A stretch of DNA of 64,000 nucleotides. Origin: Pseudisothecium myosuroides (lineage: Eukaryota > Streptophyta > Bryopsida > Hypnales > Lembophyllaceae). The stretch lies in NCBI GenBank assembly GCA_951799445.1, contig OX637288.1, positions 26,949,288-27,013,287 of the forward strand, read 5' to 3'. The notes under the pieces are model-generated. The model was not told where the DNA came from. It was given only the letters and a program-made list of their open reading frames with translations, and ran no database searches. The position numbers and the translations under genes were made by a program. This document shows positions 23,061-58,725 of the stretch, in pieces (the stretch's first letter is position 1; the number at the start of each line of letters is the position of its first letter).

Positions 23061-23383
23061 TTTCTCTAGATCTGCATAGAAATTTCTATTAGAGTATGTC
23101 TGAATGTTTTTTTCTCTTAAAGAGTAGTATAGAGTCGATGTTCAATAGAATACTTCTATATCCACCTTTTCGCTGTTACAATTGTCTTTCTAAGTTAGAT
23201 TTTCTAATGAAGTTCATTTTGCAATTTCTCTAGATCTGCATAGAAATTTCTATTAGAGTATGTCTGAATGTTTTTTTCTCTTAAAGAGTAGTATAGAGTT
23301 GATGTTTAATAGAATACTTCTATATCCACCTTTTTGCTGTTACAATTGTCTTTCTAAGTTAGATTTTCTAATGAAGTTCATTG
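23061..23383. repeat. Tandem duplication, 164-bp period, two copies
   Basis: The block starting TTTCTCTAGATCTGCATAG at 23061 recurs at 23225 with very few substitutions (for example GTCGATGTTCAATAG against GTTGATGTTTAATAG). The unit is non-coding and AT-rich. Confidence 0.9.
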
Positions 23384-23516
23384 TTGTGCAAACGGAGCAC
23401 ACTTTATTATTAATTCCCTCGGTCATCTCTAAGTAACATGATGCTCCCAAGTTTGCAGCAAGTAGCTAATTCATCATCAGTACTAGTGTTGTATGAAACT
23501 TTTCAAGGGGGTGAGC

Positions 23517-23989
23517 AGACCAATTCTAGTGTCGTTGCAGAGATTGAAGATGGAGAGTTTATTCCTGAAGATGGAGAGTTCATTCCTGAAGATCAGAGGG
23601 AGTGGATGGACCCAGACCAATTCTAGTGTCGTTGCAGAGATTGAAGATGGAGAGTTTATTCCTGAAGATGGAGAGTTCATTCCTGAAGATCAGAGGGAGT
23701 GGATGGACCCATCAGGTGAACAAAATCGTCCACTGAAAAGGCAACTTGGAACAAGTTAGTTTCTCTTGTCATGGACAACTTGGATATTGCCACTTCCTCA
23801 TGAAAAAGATGCAGAGATTGAAGATGGAGAGTTTATTCCTGAAGATGGAGAGTTCATTCCTGAAGATCAGAGGGAGTGGATGGACCCATCAGGTGAACAA
23901 AATCGTCCACTGAAAAGGCAACTTGGAACAAGTTAGTTTCTCTTGTCATGGACAACTTGGATATTGCCACTTCCTCATGAAAAAGATGT
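23517..23989 (+). repeat. Overlapping tandem duplications of a coding-like acidic motif
   Basis: A 97-bp unit starting AGACCAATTCTAGTGTCG at 23517 recurs at 23614. A second event with 178-bp period duplicates 23634-23811 as 23812-23989. All three copies of the core encode EDGEFIPEDGEFIPEDQREW followed by MDP, itself an internal EDGEFIP duplication. The frame could be a degenerate exon of the gene fragment nearby, but no complete gene can be assembled. Confidence 0.85.
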
Positions 23990-24021
23990 CGATGATTCTT
24001 CGCAATTTGATGCGTGCAAGG

Positions 24022-24325
24022 GATAAGTTGGGCACCCCCAAAACCGCCACTTTTAGCTACTGTGCCTAGTTACTATTATTAGTCTGGTCAAATTTTCATA
24101 TTTTCTTGTTGGCAAGTAAAAGGAGGTCCTAATGCACCATGTGCCTAGTTACTATTATTAGTCTGGTCAAATTTTCATATTTTCTTGTTGGCAAGTAAAA
24201 GGAGGTCCTAACGCACCAAAGAAACGATATTTGGATATTTTTTGCAAAAGTTATGAAGGATCAAAGTTTATTGGAATAGAGGTTCTAAAATTTTCTTCTA
24301 CATAGGTACATATTGATTTTGGAGT
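24022..24325. repeat. Dispersed repeat copy with internal 79-bp tandem duplication
   Basis: A block starting TGTGCCTAGTTACTATTATT at 24061 recurs at 24140. The larger segment is homologous, in reverse orientation, to 63165-63385 and more weakly to 28733-29014: shared landmarks are CTTGTTGGCAAGT, a GAGGTTCTAAAAT block and a GGTACATATTGA block. This defines a dispersed MITE-like family. Confidence 0.7.
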
Positions 24326-29842: not shown

Positions 29843-29859
29843 GCTGGAATAGCTCAGTT

Positions 29860-29892
<33 letters not shown>

Positions 29893-29916
29893 GAGGTTCG
29901 ACCCCTCCTTCTAGCG
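29843..29916 (+). tRNA. trnN-GUU: tRNA-Asn (anticodon GUU)
   Basis: A 74-nt sequence folds as a complete cloverleaf. The acceptor stem GCTGGAA pairs with TTCTAGC (one G-U) and has discriminator G. The D-loop contains AGCTCAGTTGGTTAGAGC, the anticodon loop CTGTTAACC carries GTT, and the T-arm is GGAGG-TTCGACC-CCTCC. CCA is not encoded, as expected for a nuclear gene. No intron. The A and B boxes are intact, so it is likely functional. Confidence 0.97.
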
Positions 29917-36200: not shown

Positions 36201-37250
36201 GGTGCCGCGCATCCCCTTCGATGATCAGATCTTCGAATTCAAGCACTTCGGCTATTGTTTCTACTACAACAGTCGCTACAAATCAAAGGTGTGTTCAATC
36301 TTGCTTTGGACAACAACCTGGAATTGCGTGCATGTTAAACTCTTCGACATAATGTAAGTTCATGAATCCAAAATCGACACTTTTCTGGTCCTGCGCATGC
36401 CGGACATCTTGGAGGGCAGACGAGAATTTATTCAATTCAAATGAAGTAATCGAATTCATTTTGAAGAGAAACGAAATTTTCTCGTTTTGTAATTTTATGA
36501 CACTCAAGCAAAAGGAACCTTCTGAATTTTCAAAGTTGAAATCCTTCGCAACCTACTATTGACATCTGAAAGTCCCTTATATGGATATCCACGACGCAGG
36601 AAATGCTTCAATTCCAATTGAGTACTCTTCAAAAAACTTGTGTGACGGTTTTGAAGACTATGTAATGTCATTTTAATGCTAAATCCAGGTTTCCATAAAC
36701 AAATTGTGTTCATTTGGGAGCACTTACCTAATACTGACCTAGAAATGTTGTTGCAGTACTCCGTACTTGTTTGAGACGCCTCAGAAAACTTCTTCTACCC
36801 GAAGACTATGTATTGTCAAATGTTCTAATGCTAAATCCAGGTCTCCATAAACAAATTGTGTTCATTCGGGTGCACTTACCTGGTGCTGACCTAGAAGTGT
36901 TGTTGCAGTGTTTGGAAGAGACGCCTCGGAAGAACTTCTTCTACCTCTCCGATGCGCTAATAGTTCACTTAACGGCGCTTGGGGAGCTTTACAATGCCTG
37001 CCGTCCAGTGGACCCGGAGTTTGCCGAGTCGTGGTCGTCCCTTTTCGCGAGAGTGATGGCGCTCTTCGTTCCCGGCGTTGGGGGTCACAGCCCTGTGAAC
37101 TACGTGAATGCCGTGCGCCTCGGACCAGCTCCACTCGTGGCGAAGGTCACTGAGGAGATTCACGAGATCGACCAAACGCTGCATGAGTGGGAAGAGAAAG
37201 CCCGAGATTTCACGTACCGATTGTACTCTAAATGTTTCAGGCGCTCTTGA
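33286..37250 (+). CDS. OBL1: Class 3 triacylglycerol lipase, OBL1 type
   Basis: Predicted lipid-droplet-associated triacylglycerol lipase. Exons 33286-33900, 34420-34719, 35872-36288 and 36909-37250 are all phase 0 and encode 557 aa. A hydrophobic segment at residues ~80-102 could bind the lipid surface; OBL1 proteins act on oil bodies. The catalytic Ser is S353 in GHSLGGALAALYAG, with D414 (CNDLVPRIP) and H504 (GGHSPVNYV) completing the triad. FGQPRIGD and FRVVYCNDLVPR are strongly typical of the plant OBL1/class 3 group. The ATG at 33286 (MSSSDSDDAH) is the first in-frame ATG after an upstream stop. Intron 2 carries two MITEs; intron 3 carries a duplicated copy of its own 3' splice region. 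The gene is tail-to-tail with the hydrolase at 37499. Substrate specificity is inferred from family. Confidence 0.92.
35078..35409. mobile_element. Stowaway-like MITE in lipase intron 2
   Basis: The left terminus CTTCCTCTGTCCTGAAATG and the right terminus (reverse complement CTCCCTCTGTCCCGAAATG) are inverted and flanked by TA (35076-35077, 35410-35411). These match the Stowaway (Tc1/mariner) signature CTCCCTCYGT. An internal inverted repeat around TGGGCAATTTCGTTAAAATG (near 35143 and 35280) adds secondary structure. No ORF. Confidence 0.8.
35461..35653. mobile_element. pogo/Tigger-like MITE in lipase intron 2
   Basis: A 193-bp element begins CAGTAGAACCTGTCTTAATG and ends with the inverse of CAGTAGAACCTCTCTTATTG, flanked by TA at 35459-35460 and 35654-35655. 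CAGTAGAACCTC-type termini with TA duplication are typical of pogo/Tigger members of Tc1/mariner. Subterminal repeats of AAGAGAGGT occur several times. Non-autonomous. Confidence 0.82.
36645..36908 (+). repeat. Duplicated intron-exon border in lipase intron 3
   Basis: The segment with GCTAAATCCAGGTTTCCATA near 36679 through GAGACGCCTCAGAAAACTTC near 36773 is repeated about 155 bp downstream at the real exon 4 border (GCTAAATCCAGGTCTCCATA; GAGACGCCTCGGAAGAACTT). The first copy includes a GTTGCAG acceptor and a decayed exon start carrying an extra TACTCCGTACTTG. It is therefore a partial exon duplication that is now intronic. Confidence 0.85.
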
Positions 37251-37498: not shown

Positions 37499-38545
37499 TT
37501 ACGACGACGAAGCGGGATCCTTCATTTTCCTCGCCTGAATGTGATACTCGAACCACTGAAAAATCTCCGGCGCCGCAATGCTCGAGAATTCATGAAAGGC
37601 AAAGGCGACGTTCAGCTCCTGCTCTACGTGAGCTCTCAGTTGGTTCGGAAGCAGATCCATCTCTTCCAGCGCTTTACTCCAATCAAACCACCTCGCATCA
37701 TTCTTCAACAATCTTTCCTGCGTCAAGCTCCCATTAAGCGCGGCCACCATTAGCCCAGACGTCACATTCCCTATATAAGGAATGCGCCTCGCGAACAAAT
37801 CCGGTAACACGGGCGCCTCCTGCACCAAATACTCCGTCACAGGAACGCCACTCGCAGTCATCGCCGCCATGTCAACCCTAATTTGCTTCGCACGGGCCAC
37901 ATCCTTCACCATATGCACAAACATCACGGGAGGGTACCGTACCGTCGAATTCATCAAGTTGAATCCCTTAAACCTGGCCTCCGCAACCATAAGCACGATC
38001 GCATCAAACCGAAACTGCATCGCAAACTGCGAAACAAACCATCCCCCTGTCGAAGATCCCAATGCCACAACCGGTAACCTCTCTAACCCTCGCCTCTCAA
38101 TCCATTCCTTCAAAATGTCGCCCACATATGCCAAGTCGTCCTTCAAATTCCAGCAGAAAGTGGTGCTGGAGATCGCGATGACGGCAAGCCGTCGTTGGAG
38201 GGCGGAGACCACGAGGGCGCGCTCTTCGGGTAACCCTAAACACTGCGGACAGCCAGAATGAGGGTCCCAGAAACTGCGTGCGCTGCGGCCACATCCGTGT
38301 GCGAGGAAGAGAATGGCCACCGGGGATGGAGGGATTTGGAAGACGTAATCGGTGTAGCGCGTGGCGTCGTGGTGGCGAGTGGGAATCAAGATAGGGTTGA
38401 AGACGGGGTATGTGTTGAGGATTCTCGGGAAAAAATGATGCTCCAAGGGTGATGGTGGTGAAGGTGTAGCGGAGCGCCAGCCGAAGAGGATGATGGGCGA
38501 CGTGATGAGGCAGATGAGCCAATATATGCAATTCTTGGATGGCAT
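37499..38545 (-). CDS. Alpha/beta hydrolase, single exon, membrane-anchored or secreted
   Basis: Uninterrupted 348-aa ORF with an N-terminal hydrophobic signal or anchor (residues 1-23, YWLICLITSPIILFGW). The alpha/beta hydrolase pattern is visible: a strand followed by the oxyanion-type HG (LAHGCGRSARSFW, H83-G84), then the nucleophile elbow GSSTGG with Ser165, then a C-terminal His-containing region (VAFAFHEFSS). The substrate cannot be predicted. No introns are seen. The gene is convergent with the lipase (248 bp between stop codons). The DNA around its ATG is copied into a tandem repeat upstream, so each repeat unit carries another MPSKNCIYWL-like start; the most gene-proximal unit is used here because only it continues into the hydrolase frame. 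Confidence 0.87.
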   Translation of the reverse strand: MPSKNCIYWLICLITSPIILFGWRSATPSPPSPLEHHFFPRILNTYPVFNPILIPTRHHDATRYTDYVFQIPPSPVAILFLAHGCGRSARSFWDPHSGCPQCLGLPEERALVVSALQRRLAVIAISSTTFCWNLKDDLAYVGDILKEWIERRGLERLPVVALGSSTGGWFVSQFAMQFRFDAIVLMVAEARFKGFNLMNSTVRYPPVMFVHMVKDVARAKQIRVDMAAMTASGVPVTEYLVQEAPVLPDLFARRIPYIGNVTSGLMVAALNGSLTQERLLKNDARWFDWSKALEEMDLLPNQLRAHVEQELNVAFAFHEFSSIAAPEIFQWFEYHIQARKMKDPASSS

Positions 38546-39200
38546 TCTCGCTTGCTGGAGGAATGGGTCGGCGCGGTTCTTCGATTTCTCTTTCGAAATT
38601 CTTCCACAAGAACTCCAGATGCTTCAATCTATTGCTGCAGTTCCCGTTCTGCGGATCGCGAAGCCGAAGAGGATGATGGGCGATGTGATGAAGCAGATGA
38701 AGCAATTCATGCAATTCTTGGATGGCATTCTCGCTTGCTGGAAGATTGGGCGCGGTTTGTCGATTTTTCTCTGTCGAAATTCTTCCACGAGAACTCCAGA
38801 TGCTTCAATCTATTGCTGCAGTTCCCGCTCTGCGGATCGCCAGTCGAAGAGATGATGGGCGACGTGATGAGGCAGATGAGCCAATATATGCAATTCTTGG
38901 ATGGCATTCTCGCTTGCTGGAGGAATGGGCGCGGTTCTTCGATTTCTCTGTCGAAATTCTTCCTCGAGAACTCCAGATGCCTCAATCTATTGCTGCAGTT
39001 CCCATTCTGCGGATCGCGAAGCCGAAGAGGATGATGGGCGACGTCATGAGCCACATGAGCCAATTTATGCAATTTTTCGATGGCATTCTCGCTTGCTGGA
39101 GAATGCCTGGGATTCTTCGATTCCTCTATCGAGATTCTTCCTCAAAAACTCCAGGTGCTTCAATCAATTTCTGCAATCCACGTTCTGCGGACTCCTGGCA
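38473..39200. repeat. Four-unit tandem repeat, 178-183 bp, containing the hydrolase start codon
   Basis: Units begin with CCGAAGAGGATGATGGGCGA-like sequence at 38481, 38664, 38844 and 39022. Each holds the hydrolase start region (reverse complement of ATGCAATTCTTGGATGGCAT), with start codons on the minus strand ending at 38545, 38728, 38907 and 39086. Units are diverged from one another, with small indels. On the plus strand the array is open in several frames, but these ORFs are artefacts of the repeat. Confidence 0.93.
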
Positions 39201-46823: not shown

Positions 46824-49800
46824 ATGGGGGTGTTGGAACTCGTCGTCTTCCTCGCCGTGGTGGGGGTGGCGACAGGCTTGAACGCAGACGGTGTGGCGCT
46901 TCTCGCATTCAAAAGCTCCATCTGGTCTGACCCCAAGGGCGTCTTCAAAACCTGGAACACCTCCGACGCGACTCCATGTCAATGGAAGGGCATCACTTGC
47001 GTCAGAATTCAATCCACCATGGAGGATCGCGTGGTGAGTCTCGACTTGTCCAGGAAGGCACTCAGTGGCACCATTGCTCCCAGCCTCGGTTTACTCGGGC
47101 ACCTCGCGACCGTGAACCTTTCGAATAACAAATTCACAGGGCAGATTCCGAGGGAGCTTTTCAGAGTGACAACCTTGTCGCGGTTGTACCTCTCGTACAA
47201 CAACTTGACGGGGGGGATTCCAGTGGAGATTCGGAACTTGGGTTCGCAGTTGAGAGTGTTGGAGATTAGTGGCAATCGATTGAGTGAGTTGCCGCAGGAG
47301 ATTGTTGCGTGCTATCGACTTCGTAGGCTGGTGTTGAATAACAACCGGATTATGGGAGTGATTCCCCTGGGAATTGGGGCGAAGCTCAAGCAGCTGGAGA
47401 GGCTAGACTTGTCTGTGAATGAGTTCGTGGGGTCCGTCCCTGATGACTTCGGCAACCTCTCGTCGTTGCTGACCCAGGTAAGCACATCAAGCTTAAAATT
47501 AACTGAATTCTACACGACGTTGCGCGCAACAAGTGACAATCAGATGAGCAATTGCTTGTACTAGAATTGCAATAATCAATGCGATTGTTGCGCTTCCGTC
47601 ACTCGCCTGAAACATTTCAAAATGCAGTTCAGTTCACTCGAATTAGACCTAGACTACTGGCGTAATTCCCCACAGGCAGGCAGGAAGTTTTAGAACCTTC
47701 GTGCAATTTGTCGACAGTTTGAGATGTGTAGAGTGGGAGTGCGTGATCAATACACCCTGGTCAAATGCGTTTTAGTGGTGTGATTCAGAGAGTCGAAGTT
47801 GTGACATTCAAATGCTCCGCTAGAGTTTTTGATAATTAAGATCAATAGAGATCTGAAATTCATAGCCAGAGGCGATAATCCAAGAGTACCATTCTCTTGA
47901 AATTTCGCCGTTCTTTCGAATTTTTACCGTTTCTGTGGTTCTGGCAGGCGCCGCTCAATCTTTCCAACAACCACTTGTCGGGTTCCATCCCTCCTTCGCT
48001 GGCCAACCTCCGTAGCGTGCCGATCGACTTGAGCAATAACCAGCTCTCAGGTCCTATTCCCTCCGATTCGTATTTCCAGTCACAAGGACCGGTGGCGTAC
48101 GTTGGCAACGCCGCCCTCTGTGGCTCCCCTCTAAAGATTGATTGCCCGCCTGCACCATCGCCATCCTCTGTAATGAACAGTTCTACACCCGAAAGTGGCA
48201 GGAATTTCAACCAGAAGGAGGGACCCCCCTTGAGCAAGGCCGCCGTGGTTGCCATATCCGTGGGCAGCGGCATTGCGGGGTTCATGCTCATGGCCTCTTT
48301 CGTTCTCTACTTCTTCATGAGCATCCGAAACTCGAGGCTCCAAAGGGCAGACAGTGCGTCGCGGTATCTGTGCTCATGGCGAAGTGGAACTCCCGAGACT
48401 GGAGACGACGACGATGGTGACTTGGTGCACTTGAGCGGCGTGTTTTCCTTCAATTTGGAACAGCTGCTGCGCGCGGCCGCGTATGTGCTTGGGAAGAGCG
48501 ACGCGGGGATCGTGTACAAGGCGGTGTTGGACGAGGGCAGTGTTGTTGCCGTGCGGAGGCTTGGGGAAGGCGGAGAGCTGAGGCGAAAAGAGTTCGAGAG
48601 TGAGGTGAAATCCATCGCGCAGGTGCGCCATTCCCAATATACTACAGACACACTAAAATTGGTTGTGTAACATACAACATTGGTTGCAAAGTGCAAAAGA
48701 AAAATATTCAAGAATGGTGATGTGTTGAACAGGTGCGCCATCCTAATGTTGTCAGCTTGCATTCGTACTCGTGGACGCCGGAGGAGAAGCTCCTCGTGTA
48801 CGATTACCTCCCCAACGGCAGCTTGGAAACCGCTCTGCACGGTTAGTCCGACCCCCTACATTCACTAAAAAATTTCAAACTTTCAAGAAATTATCACTTT
48901 CCCAGACGCCTCGCCTAGATCCCAAACTCACACTAATAGACAGGTTCCTGGAATTCACGGATCCCTTTCAATTGCGTAAACGCGCAATGTCGGAGACAAC
49001 GATTCTGAGAAGTGAATTCGTTGCTGACATCTCATAAGTTGCAAGGAATGGCAAGTTTGGCGCGTAAATCTCATTAGACATTGACCCCTCAAAATTTTCA
49101 GAAACATGTTTTCAATGCTCACTATGCTAACAAACCCATGATACAAGTCCTAGTTCCAGAGCTCTTTGCACTTAAATGTCGCGCTTTGAAATACGCCATT
49201 TTCGTTAAACATGACCCCGAACTCCCCTGATCCCCTGGAAATCCATATTTTCAGCACTTGAACATCCCAATTCGCCATCCCAATTCGCCATCCCAATTTG
49301 TGTGCGAAGCTGTGCACATTGTGGCCTGAGTTGAATTGCGAATTTCGAGGTTTTGATTCGAAATTTGTTTCCAGGGGGATCGGAGTCGTCGTCGTCGAAG
49401 GCGACGTTGCCATGGGCCGCGCGCGTGCGGATCGCGAGCGGAACAGCGCACGGACTGGCGAACGTCCACGAGCGTAAGCAGAGTCACGGCGACGTCCGGC
49501 CGGGTAACATTCTTCTGGATGGGTTTCTGGAGCCGCGAATTGCTGGGTTGGGTGTGCGACGATTGGTGGCGCTCATGGCGCAGGCGGAGCTGAGCGGGAG
49601 CCTCGCCGCGGGTGGCAAGGGCCGCGGGGATTCCGGCCGCAGCGCTTCAGCGGTGTCGCCAGTGCCAGGTTAGCTTGCTCTCCAGCCATGTCCTTCATGT
49701 GGCGATGGTTTGTAAGATAAATGGCACCATCTAATACTATTTTAAACTATATTTTCTGTTTGTGTTTTAGAGTTTAATGACTCATAATAAGAAAGATTTG

Positions 49801-52331
49801 GCAAATTTCCAGCCCTGGATTTTGGCAAAATGCTGGAGAAAATAGAGTTAATCGTAAAGTGAGCAAACGCAGGAACAAGAGTCGGAGTTCTGGAAAAATA
49901 TAGGACCAAACTCCCTGGAGCACCCAAACTCAAGTTTGATTGAGTTTGGTGCCATGTTAGTTTGTTCTATTCTTAGTTAAACCTTCTTCTGACACAGGTT
50001 CACAAACACAGGACAACTTTGCAATTAACTCTAATAGACCCCAAATTTCCTATACACTTGTCGCAAATGCTTGAAGAGGGTCAGATTTTTGCTATAGATT
50101 TCGACAAAAATACGTTGAATGTCCCTCTTGCTGAAACCCTTAATAAGGAAACAACACATAAAAGTGTCTAAATAACAAGAGTTTGAGGTCATGGTTCCAT
50201 TCATTGAGGTCTGAAAGCTTTTGTTGGAAAAAGTTATATTTTTGAAAGTAAAGGTAAGATTTTTATGGACATTCTTTTTTCCATAATAAAACAGTTTCAA
50301 GAGAAAATAATGAATCTTTCTATTTTTAAGCATCTACCAAATCTTGTTTGTCAAATTTAATTAATTATTCAAGACAAAATGTTGACCCTAACCACCGGGT
50401 ACAAGAGTAGAAAGGGATTTTAAATTCTCTTAAAACACATTTTGAGACACTATATAAATAAAACTATGAATTTTCAAAGTGCTCAAAATAGGTATATCCA
50501 AAATTGACCCTAGGTTTGCATGCAGGTAAGTTGCAACATTTTAGGCAAAAGTCTAGAAGAGATGGATTTAGAAACGGGTGCCAATTAGGTGTATTTACTT
50601 TAGATTTGTCTTTTTAGCTACTTTCACAGAATACACTTTTGATATTAATGGTACGTAATTGAAAAAAAAATCTTTCTTTCTAAGGTTGGTGTAAACTGAG
50701 AGTATATTCATCATGGATTGCTTTCTTTGAGGATTAATTTTAAAAGAAGAATCAACATTGATAAGTTTCCACATTATCTAAAAAATCCTCCTAAAAATCC
50801 TCTTGTATTTGTTCTTCTAGCATTGGCTCCATTTTTGAGGATGGTCCTATTCAAATATTTTCCCTATCAATGCAAGCCCTCTCCTTTGGTCCTGAAGATA
50901 TCATGATCAGACAATTTAGCTAAGTCATGATTTTGTACACCACTTGTTAATTGAAGGTTGAAAATTCATATTGTATTCCTTCACATAGTGTCCAAAAAAT
51001 ACATACTAAAATGCATTGGAATCATCTTTCAATTGCCAAGAAGATTAAATAGAAATGAAGGTGATTCCAAAATAGGAACAAATTTGAATGCCTAAAAGCA
51101 TCCTCACCTAGTTTGTTGTTCCAGAATTCCGAACTTGGAGCTCCATATCCTTGAGTCCTTACGATGCGCCCTTCTCAATAGGCCCAATGTACCAAGCACC
51201 CGAAGTCTCAATGTTGAAGCCAGCTTCACCCAAGAGCGATGTATATTCATTTGGTGTCGTATTGCTGGAGCTTCTTAGTGGGCGGTCACCATTCCAATTG
51301 GCAGAGTCTGGAAAATTGGACTTGGTGTTGTGGTTGCGCTTCGCTCTCCAACAAAAGAATGCACTCTTTGAGATTCTCGATCCAGAGTTGCTGATCAATG
51401 CCAACAACAATTTGCAAACCAAAATGATCGAAACCTTACAAGTTAGTCCATTGCTCCATCTCCTCTTTAATCTTGTGTATAATTCTTATTCATAACCCCA
51501 AAGAATCTTAGCACCATTGAATGTATTATGAATGTTTTCAAGAGAGATTTCTATTGGAGCTAAACGGATCAAGTGTAAGAAGGATGTCAATGATTGAGCA
51601 CATTTAAACTAGTACAATGCTTTGATCATCATAATTATAGGATTACCAATCAGCACGTAGTAAATGGGATGTCTACGCTAGCTCTATAATGTTGGAAAAG
51701 CAATTTTTGTCTATTTTGCAACAATGTGGTTAGCGCGGTTGCTTTGTTGCTTCCTGCTTTTTTTGTAATGTTGTAAATCAATTCATGTAGGGATGGATTG
51801 GGAGGATAAGGCAAAAACTTGCATAAATGAATATCTTATTTCTAGATTTTTCATTGGCTATAATTTATTGTAGTTTGTCCTACAAATTCCAAATTTACAT
51901 TCCCTTCCCTAGTTTGTTGTAACCAAATGAATTTTCATGCATGGGATTTAATAGACACTAGTTGTAGTATTATACCTAATCTAAGTGGGTTTCAAATCTA
52001 AGGAAAGCGTGATAAAAAAAAGAATTTGGTTGAACTTGTTATTGAGCAATCATTGCATTCAAGCAACTTATATATATATATATATATATGTCTACTCGCA
52101 CATAGCCTCCTTGGTCATTTTTATTACCTATTGAAAAAATACATTGTATTTGTCCAAAGTAAAACCACTAATTCTTGTGACCATCTTTGTTGATACTTGA
52201 TTGTCATGTAAATCTTTTACATCTGCTTTGATGTGCAGGTAGCATTGGCATGTACTACTGTTGACCCCGACTCTCGACCAAAGATGAAACAAGTGGCTGA
52301 GTTTTTCAAACAAATCCAAGCCACTTCATAA
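46824..52331 (+). CDS. LRR receptor-like kinase, subfamily III, ZAR1-like, predicted pseudokinase
   Basis: Exons 46824-47477, 47948-48622, 48733-48841, 49375-49668, 51125-51441 and 52239-52331 join in phase to 713 aa. A signal peptide (~1-19) precedes an LRR N-cap (LNADGVALLAFKSSIWSDP), about six LRRs to residue ~270, a Pro/Ser-rich stalk, a transmembrane helix at ~315-342 and an intracellular kinase domain from ~385. The order and the phrases VLGKSDAGIVYK, AVRRLGEGG and HGDVRPGNIL resemble plant ZAR1-type LRR-III receptors, which signal at the plasma membrane in zygote polarity. The VAIK lysine is Arg (VAVRRL) and DFG is replaced by GLG (RIAGLGVRRL), so catalysis is unlikely; APE is kept (YQAPE). 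Intron 2 (48623-48732) appears to be a recent repeat insertion. Ligand unknown. Confidence 0.9.
48623..48732 (+). mobile_element. Introner-like insertion forming LRR kinase intron 2
   Basis: The 110-nt intron is bounded by a 12-bp direct repeat CAGGTGCGCCAT (48620-48631 and 48730-48741). Splicing uses the GT inside the first copy and the AG inside the second, restoring the original coding sequence (VRHPNVVSL). Its interior (ACTACAGACACACTAAAATT, then GTTGTGTAACATACAACATT) matches the repeats near 58490 and 58642. A repeat with a target duplication that supplies both splice sites is the signature of an introner. Unspliced, it adds an in-frame TAA. Confidence 0.7.
49669..51124 (+). other. Large intron 4 of the LRR kinase gene
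   Basis: A 1456-bp AT-rich intron with donor ccag|gttagc and acceptor ttccag|aattcc. No embedded gene or clear element was recognised. Confidence 0.7.
52070..52089. repeat. TA dinucleotide microsatellite
   Basis: About ten TA units lie in intron 5 of the LRR kinase gene. Confidence 0.9.
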
Positions 52332-58344: not shown

Positions 58345-58725
58345 TCACATTGGTTTTGTATCATACAACATTGGTTCACAAAATCCATGGTAGAGAAACC
58401 AATCAATCGCGGCAAACACGCAAACCACACATAAATGGATCAACCCTAAACTTCCAATTGGAGCAAAAAAGAGAACATATACTACAGACAAGCAAATATT
58501 GGTTGGGTAACATACAACATTGCTTTCAAATTGCAAATTGCAAACCATGGTAGAGAAACCAATCAATCGAGGCATACACGCAAACCACACATAAATGGAT
58601 CAACCCAAAAACTTCTAATTTGAGCGAAAAAGAGATCCAATACTACAGGCACGCAAATATTGGTTGTGTAACATACAACATTGCTTTCAAATTGCAAATT
58701 TATTTGTTCAAGGAAGCTGAGGTGA
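58345..58725. repeat. Tandem repeat (~150 bp) upstream of the OTU gene
   Basis: Two full units and a partial third share CATACAACATTG, CCATGGTAGAGAAACCAATC, ACGCAAACCACACATAAATG and GATCAACCC blocks (first unit from about 58362, second from about 58510, partial third from about 58670). The segment running from ACTACAG through TTGGTTGTGTAACATACAAC to TTGCAAA is the part shared with LRR kinase intron 2. Confidence 0.88.

What the first reader, a model, noticed from the sequence alone, without database searches (positions are those of the whole stretch)
48620..48741. Introner-like intron in a plant receptor kinase gene
Intron 2 of the LRR kinase gene (110 nt) is exactly bounded by a 12-bp direct repeat, CAGGTGCGCCAT. 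The donor GT comes from one copy and the acceptor AG from the other, so splicing restores the pre-insertion sequence. The interior belongs to a repeat found in tandem near 58.35-58.72 kb. This is the structure expected when a mobile repeat inserts into an AG|GT proto-splice site and becomes an intron at once. Introners are described mainly in algae, fungi and protists; I know of no established land-plant family.
Basis: partly seen in the sequence, partly recalled or inferred. Interest (0 to 1): 0.8.

Follow-up and report, generated by a model that had tools for sequence, protein, structure and literature searches.

The report
Gained intron with a traceable source
A plant receptor-kinase gene appears to have gained a 110-base intron when DNA resembling a sequence 10,000 bases away was inserted and its edges formed ready-made splice sites; it looks like a single repair-type event, not a spreading 'introner' family.

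Summary
The 12-bp direct repeat CAGGTGCGCCAT lies at 48620-48631 and 48730-48741. It brackets a 110-nt GT..AG segment (48623-48732) whose interior is 87-88% identical to tandem units near 58.5 and 58.65 kb. Intron gain is well supported: the closest paralogue in the same genome (76% of 103 residues) reads straight through this position while sharing introns 3 and 4 and probably 1; the next seven paralogues by score also read through. The introner reading is not supported. In 388 Mb, similarity searches found the interior at two places 10 kb apart. The 20-bp core within one mismatch occurs three times, all here. Thirteen weaker sites have flanks not significantly better than shuffled ones, though five come near 5%; 260 kb of sampled genome has no clear copy. 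Best reading: one locally templated insertion during repair of a staggered break duplicated a CAGGT target, so splicing restores the frame. Splicing is inferred: no RNA data, and the acceptor is pyrimidine-poor. Insertion-type intron gain is known, also in plants; the traceable source, in a probable moss, is the unusual part.

The parts
46824..52331 (+). ZAR1-like LRR receptor kinase gene, six exons: 46824-47477, 47948-48622, 48733-48841, 49375-49668, 51125-51441, 52239-about 52331
   Evidence: Translation and tblastn with P0001 (641 of 712 aligned residues identical); Pkinase and LRR Pfam domains
48620..48631 (+). Left copy of the 12-bp direct repeat CAGGTGCGCCAT; supplies the donor CAG|GTGCGC
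48623..48732 (+). Intron 2, 110 nt, GT..AG, phase 0; if retained, 15 codons are read (VRHSQYTTDTLKLVV) and then an in-frame stop
   Evidence: absent from the C3 paralogue
48637..48697 (+). Interior tract matching the units near 58.5 and 58.65 kb at 87-88%
48698..48724 (+). Weak collinear continuation of the match into the 3' flank of the last unit
   Evidence: 36 of 2000 shuffles reach the score
48730..48741 (+). Right copy of CAGGTGCGCCAT; supplies the acceptor CAG| and the start of exon 3
58385..58700 (+). Probable source locus: tandem array of period 161 bp (2.0 copies, 91% matches); the core occurs once more just upstream (58349-58376)
   Evidence: (TRF)

Best explanation
Intron 2 was gained once, in this gene, by a locally templated insertion. 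A staggered break (or two nearby nicks on opposite strands) fell around a CAG|GT site in what was one continuous exon. Repair copied about 60-86 bp from an A+T-rich tandem array 10 kb downstream, on the same strand, into the break. Filling in the staggered ends duplicated 12 bp (perhaps about 18). The left copy's GT became the donor and the right copy's CAG the acceptor, so splicing removes exactly what was added and restores Q|V in the kinase domain. Shown: the repeat, the shared interior, its restriction to two loci at the sensitivity used, and the intron's absence from the closest paralogues. Inferred: the order of events, the break-repair route, the direction of copying, and that the intron is spliced.
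For: Exact 12-bp repeat across both junctions. Interior found only at one other locus, 10 kb away, same orientation (core pattern). Closest paralogue C3:26370747-26371055 aligns 103 of 103 residues in 309 nt without a break; its homology stops and resumes at the places of introns 3 and 4, and starts at the place of intron 1 (exon 1 itself is not in the 914 bp fetched upstream). The seven next-best places also read through. 110 of 120 listed homologues match an uninterrupted motif at the junction; this shows what the spliced product should look like, not where their introns are. Exons 3-6 are open over about 270 codons; under substitutions alone without selection this happens in 693, 248 and 51 of 2000 simulations at 3%, 6% and 12% change per site, which mildly favours continued translation. 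Daphnia new introns carry 4-12-bp repeats of this kind, attributed there to staggered breaks (PMC4202315, passages).
Against: The interior is 12-13% diverged from either array unit, so direction of copying cannot be proved. Its 3' part (48698-48724) is only weakly similar. No RNA evidence; the acceptor lacks a pyrimidine tract and no YTNAY motif lies in its last 60 nt, whereas each of the other four introns has at least one. At 3% change an unselected frame would often stay open (693 of 2000). The half downstream of the insertion evolves faster against P0001 (232 of 269 identical, versus 409 of 443 upstream), compatible with relaxed constraint. The 2012 review notes that break-repair inserts long enough to be introns may not often be flanked by direct repeats (PMC3443670, passage). 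A low-copy mobile element would leave the same footprint.
Confidence: 0.6

Rival explanations
1. Insertion of a low-copy or dying transposable element (for example SINE-like or MITE-like) with a 12-bp target duplication; the 58-kb array is another remnant of the same element.
For: A 12-bp duplication fits reverse-transcribed elements (recalled). Transposon-insertion introns are listed for Oryza and Zea (PMC3443670, Table 1 passage). Five of 13 weak core sites have flanks near the 5% mark (28-44 of 500 shuffles, intron query), where about one would be expected; with the r3 query the lowest is 90 of 500.
Against: Two loci only in the similarity searches; at the second the sequence is part of a tandem array, and I saw no flanking duplication by eye; no marked fold. 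Target duplications of DNA-type introners are given as 3-9 bp (PMC9860276, passage), shorter than here.
Confidence: 0.22
2. An active introner family in this plant, of which this intron is a member.
For: Structure matches introners that take both splice sites from the insertion site (Florenciella, PMC9860276, passages).
Against: No other copy at E<=10 for the 441-bp query; core within 1 mismatch only in the window; weaker sites fail the flank test while the window's own units r1 and r2 pass it; no clear copy in 260 kb. The 2022 survey reports introners in no land plant.
Confidence: 0.03
3. An old intron whose flanks resemble each other by chance, with a later insertion of the 58-kb sequence inside it; the paralogues lost it.
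For: In Drosophila conserved introns are flanked by repeats of 5 bp or more as often as gained ones (26% versus 25%; PMC3443670, passage).
Against: About 1-3 in 10,000 per AGGT pair for 12 bp; the tract nearly fills the intron; needs losses in the eight paralogues examined while the closest one shares introns 3 and 4 and probably 1.
Confidence: 0.08
4. Insertional damage that is not spliced efficiently: the gene is a recent pseudogene or makes a truncated protein.
For: Weak acceptor; in-frame stop if retained; downstream half evolves faster.
Against: Exons 3-6 open and 86% identical to P0001. P0001 itself is one 712-aa frame on a 3188-bp contig, hence probably a transcript of a relative (inference); it does not show that this species splices.
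Confidence: 0.07

Closest known systems
Daphnia pulex new introns attributed to staggered double-strand-break repair (PMC4202315; passages)
   Same: Exon sequence directly repeated at the opposite intron end, 4-12 bp; single events
   Different: Here the inserted DNA has an identifiable relative 10 kb away; probable moss; no population data
Transposon-insertion introns in Oryza and Zea (listed in PMC3443670, passages; originals not read, rice catalase recalled)
   Same: Land plants; insertion into an AG|GT site with duplication of the target
   Different: No transposable element recognised here; the relative is a local tandem array
Introners (Gozashti et al. 2022, PMC9860276; passages)
   Same: Splice sites taken from the target; coding sequence restored (at sequence level)
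   Different: Introners are multi-copy; this is not at the sensitivity used. That survey found none in land plants
Tandem genomic duplication of an AGGT-bearing exon segment (described in PMC3443670, passages)
   Same: Two AGGT copies as donor and acceptor
   Different: The interior here is not exon sequence

Membership tests
Introner family | Many similar copies forming introns in different genes | tested here: not met
   two loci at the sensitivity used, one of them an intron
Introner family | Splice sites supplied by element and/or target; coding sequence restored | tested here: met
   (sequence level; splicing itself not tested)
Introner family | Intron absent from relatives (gain) | tested here: met
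   eight paralogues in the same genome; orthologues not available
Break-repair (staggered DSB) intron gain | Short direct repeat at intron ends | tested here: met
Break-repair (staggered DSB) intron gain | Insert is single-copy filler or matches DNA elsewhere in the genome | tested here: met
   matches one locus 10 kb downstream
Break-repair (staggered DSB) intron gain | Intron-free allele or orthologue with one copy of the repeat | not testable with these tools
   closest paralogue has one copy of the region (AATGTGCGACATCCCAAT) but is 25% diverged in DNA
Transposable-element insertion | Other dispersed copies with target duplications | tested here: not met
   strongly decayed copies not excluded
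Transposable-element insertion | Terminal inverted repeats or retro-element tail | tested here: inconclusive
   no marked fold; none noticed by eye; decayed ends possible
Spliceosomal intron | Removed from mRNA | not testable with these tools
   GT..AG, restored frame, in-frame stop on retention only

The most novel reading that the evidence does not exclude
This plant's genome repeatedly makes introns by copying nearby non-coding DNA into staggered breaks at CAG|GT sites, so that introns with traceable local sources are common in mosses and intron birth could be followed population by population.
Probability: 0.12. Interest if true: 0.75.

Novelty: new member of a known kind. Interest (0 to 1): 0.42.

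Why it matters
Many gained introns have no identified source. The 2012 review table I saw lists five unambiguous break-repair gains, in Drosophila, Daphnia, Aspergillus, Bigelowiella and human, none in a plant (PMC3443670, passage). Here the target duplication, the insert's relative 10 kb away and an intron-free paralogue are all visible, so one intron's birth could be reconstructed and dated in relatives. It also removes a tempting claim, that land plants have introners, as far as this evidence goes.

Tried and rejected
Introner or mobile-family reading: rejected for this sequence after whole-genome searches, a 260-kb sample (best matches there were short, E 0.043-0.41) and flank-shuffle tests of 13 weaker sites. 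The 12 sites fetched were picked by eye from the 62 pattern hits outside the window, favouring those that keep the 3' half of the core; the thirteenth lay in a stretch already held.

Fold of the interior: nothing marked. Other AGGT pairs with long repeats in the window (34995/35773 and 36687/36839, 17 bp each) were read by eye and look like segmental duplications in non-coding stretches, not intron-boundary duplications. A longer, 18-bp target duplication: suggestive only. Pfam on four reading frames near the source locus: no match. Paper search 'intron gain + tandem duplication + AGGT + direct repeats' found nothing; one on templated insertion and filler DNA gave one primate paper, not used. 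Passages on LRR-kinase gene structure (PMC5296948) were not usable because I did not assign this gene to a subfamily.

Full report
What is there. The window is part of a 388-Mb genome in 222 contigs. The gene at 46824 to about 52331 encodes a ZAR1-like LRR receptor kinase. Its best relative is P0001 (88% identity in the search, 641 of 712 aligned residues in my global alignment), then Ceratodon, Pohlia and Physcomitrium proteins at 55-59%. I infer a moss; no call names the species. Intron 2 (48623-48732) is bracketed by CAGGTGCGCCAT at 48620-48631 and 48730-48741. Splicing gives KSIAQ|VRHPNVVSL; retention gives 15 codons and a stop. By eye, none of the gene's other four introns has such a repeat at its ends (boundaries printed).

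Is it chance? Of 55,098 same-strand pairs of AGGT sites in the window, 16 share 12 bp or more, several of them tandem or segmental duplications. With the interior match (E 1.4e-16 in the window; 7.7e-13 in the genome search) chance is not a serious option.

Gain, not retention. A search of the own genome with 103 residues around the junction scored 150 of 640 candidates. I fetched the eight best places outside the window. All eight read through the position. The closest, on C3 (212 of 282 aligned bases identical), stops and resumes its homology where this gene has introns 3 and 4; its homology begins at the intron-1 acceptor, but exon 1 was not in the fetched stretch, so intron 1 is only probable; the place of intron 5 was not reached. 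The other matches were seen only as table rows. Orthologues in other mosses could not be checked for introns, because protein hits carry no gene structure. Of the 120 listed homologues (of 6906 found) 110 match an uninterrupted motif at the junction; the ten that do not were not studied further, except that P0003 (Pohlia) reads VAPVTRHPHVV there, possibly a poor gene model.

Not a family. The 161-base intron query found three places, all in the window. The 441-base source-locus query at E<=10 found two. The tool warns that common words are skipped, so I used a mismatch pattern: the 20-base core with up to 3 mismatches occurs 66 times, versus 51 for the reversed control; with at most 1 mismatch 3 times, all here; with exactly 2 mismatches 3 times, one here. 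Twelve of the sites outside the window were fetched and a thirteenth was already held. With the core held in place and flanks shuffled, none of 13 fell below 5% with the intron query or the r3 query; the five lowest with the intron query were 28, 29, 34, 39 and 44 of 500, more near-misses than the one or so expected, and the lowest with r3 was 90 of 500. The window's own units, tested with the intron query, gave 2 (r1) and 0 (r2) of 500. A 260-kb sample (60 kb adjoining, 200 kb on contigs C1-C4) held no match better than E 0.04, while 10 of 60 random 161-bp pieces of the window had matches there at 1e-6. A strongly decayed family cannot be excluded.

Anatomy of the insert. From left to right: repeat copy (12 bp, perhaps continuing TCCCAAT); tract 48637-48697 at 87-88% to the array units; weaker collinear tract to 48724 resembling the 3' flank of the last unit; TTGAA; repeat copy. 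Most of the insert is thus accounted for by one locus 10,001 bp downstream in the same orientation. The 12-13% divergence suggests the event is not very recent, unless the copied unit has since been replaced.

Mechanism. I favour a single templated insertion during repair of a staggered break, which duplicates the target and brings A+T-rich DNA (67% of the 98 unrepeated bases) of the kind plant splicing favours (recalled). The same footprint is reported for Daphnia new introns (PMC4202315, passages). A mobile element of very low copy number is the main rival. Weak points: no RNA evidence; acceptor pyrimidine fraction 0.35 versus 0.65-0.75 in the other four introns and no YTNAY in the last 60 nt; the half downstream of the insertion evolving faster (232 of 269 versus 409 of 443 residues identical to P0001). 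Against a dead gene: exons 3-6 are open, which unselected substitution alone would leave in 693, 248 and 51 of 2000 runs at 3%, 6% and 12% change; indels, not simulated, would make that rarer. The age needed for this argument rests on the interior's divergence and is uncertain.

Known context. Gozashti et al. 2022 (PMC9860276, passages) report introners in no land plant and describe introners that take both splice sites from the insertion site. A 2012 review (PMC3443670, passages) lists transposon-insertion introns in Oryza and Zea and five break-repair gains, none in plants. A 2025 survey (PMC11782384, abstract and the first part of the Results) reports direct repeats near all 213 introns examined, many imperfect, so a repeat alone is weak evidence; here the insert's relative and the paralogues carry the argument. 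Searches for introners with land plants (16 papers), introner with moss (5) and introners since 2022 (12) listed no paper whose title or opening abstract describes a land-plant introner family. PMC10487979 (MSH1 genes of green plants, passages) reports intron gains and losses including bryophytes and cites introners only in general terms. Other papers in these lists were seen as listings only.

Noticed in passing
49263-49298: Intron 3 of the same gene carries 2.8 tandem copies of CATCCCAATTCGC; CGCCATCCCAAT in it resembles the intron-2 target site (CGCCATCCTAAT in the exon). Possibly another local copying event, possibly chance.
   Followed up: no
49375-49668: The kinase reads IAGLG where DFG is expected, also in P0001; the C3 paralogue reads VADFG. 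Possibly a catalytically inactive receptor shared with the P0001 species.
   Followed up: partly
36660-36910: Near-tandem duplication with 17 bp identical around AGGT, 152 bp apart, in a non-coding stretch of a lipase-like gene.
   Followed up: partly
38479-39191: About four tandem copies of a 179-bp unit, partly overlapping reading frames on the minus strand.
   Followed up: no
23061-24218: Cluster of tandem duplications (periods 164, 97, 177 and 79 bp) within about 1.2 kb.
   Followed up: no
29843-29916: tRNA gene (Rfam RF00005, 71.1 bits), plus strand.
   Followed up: no
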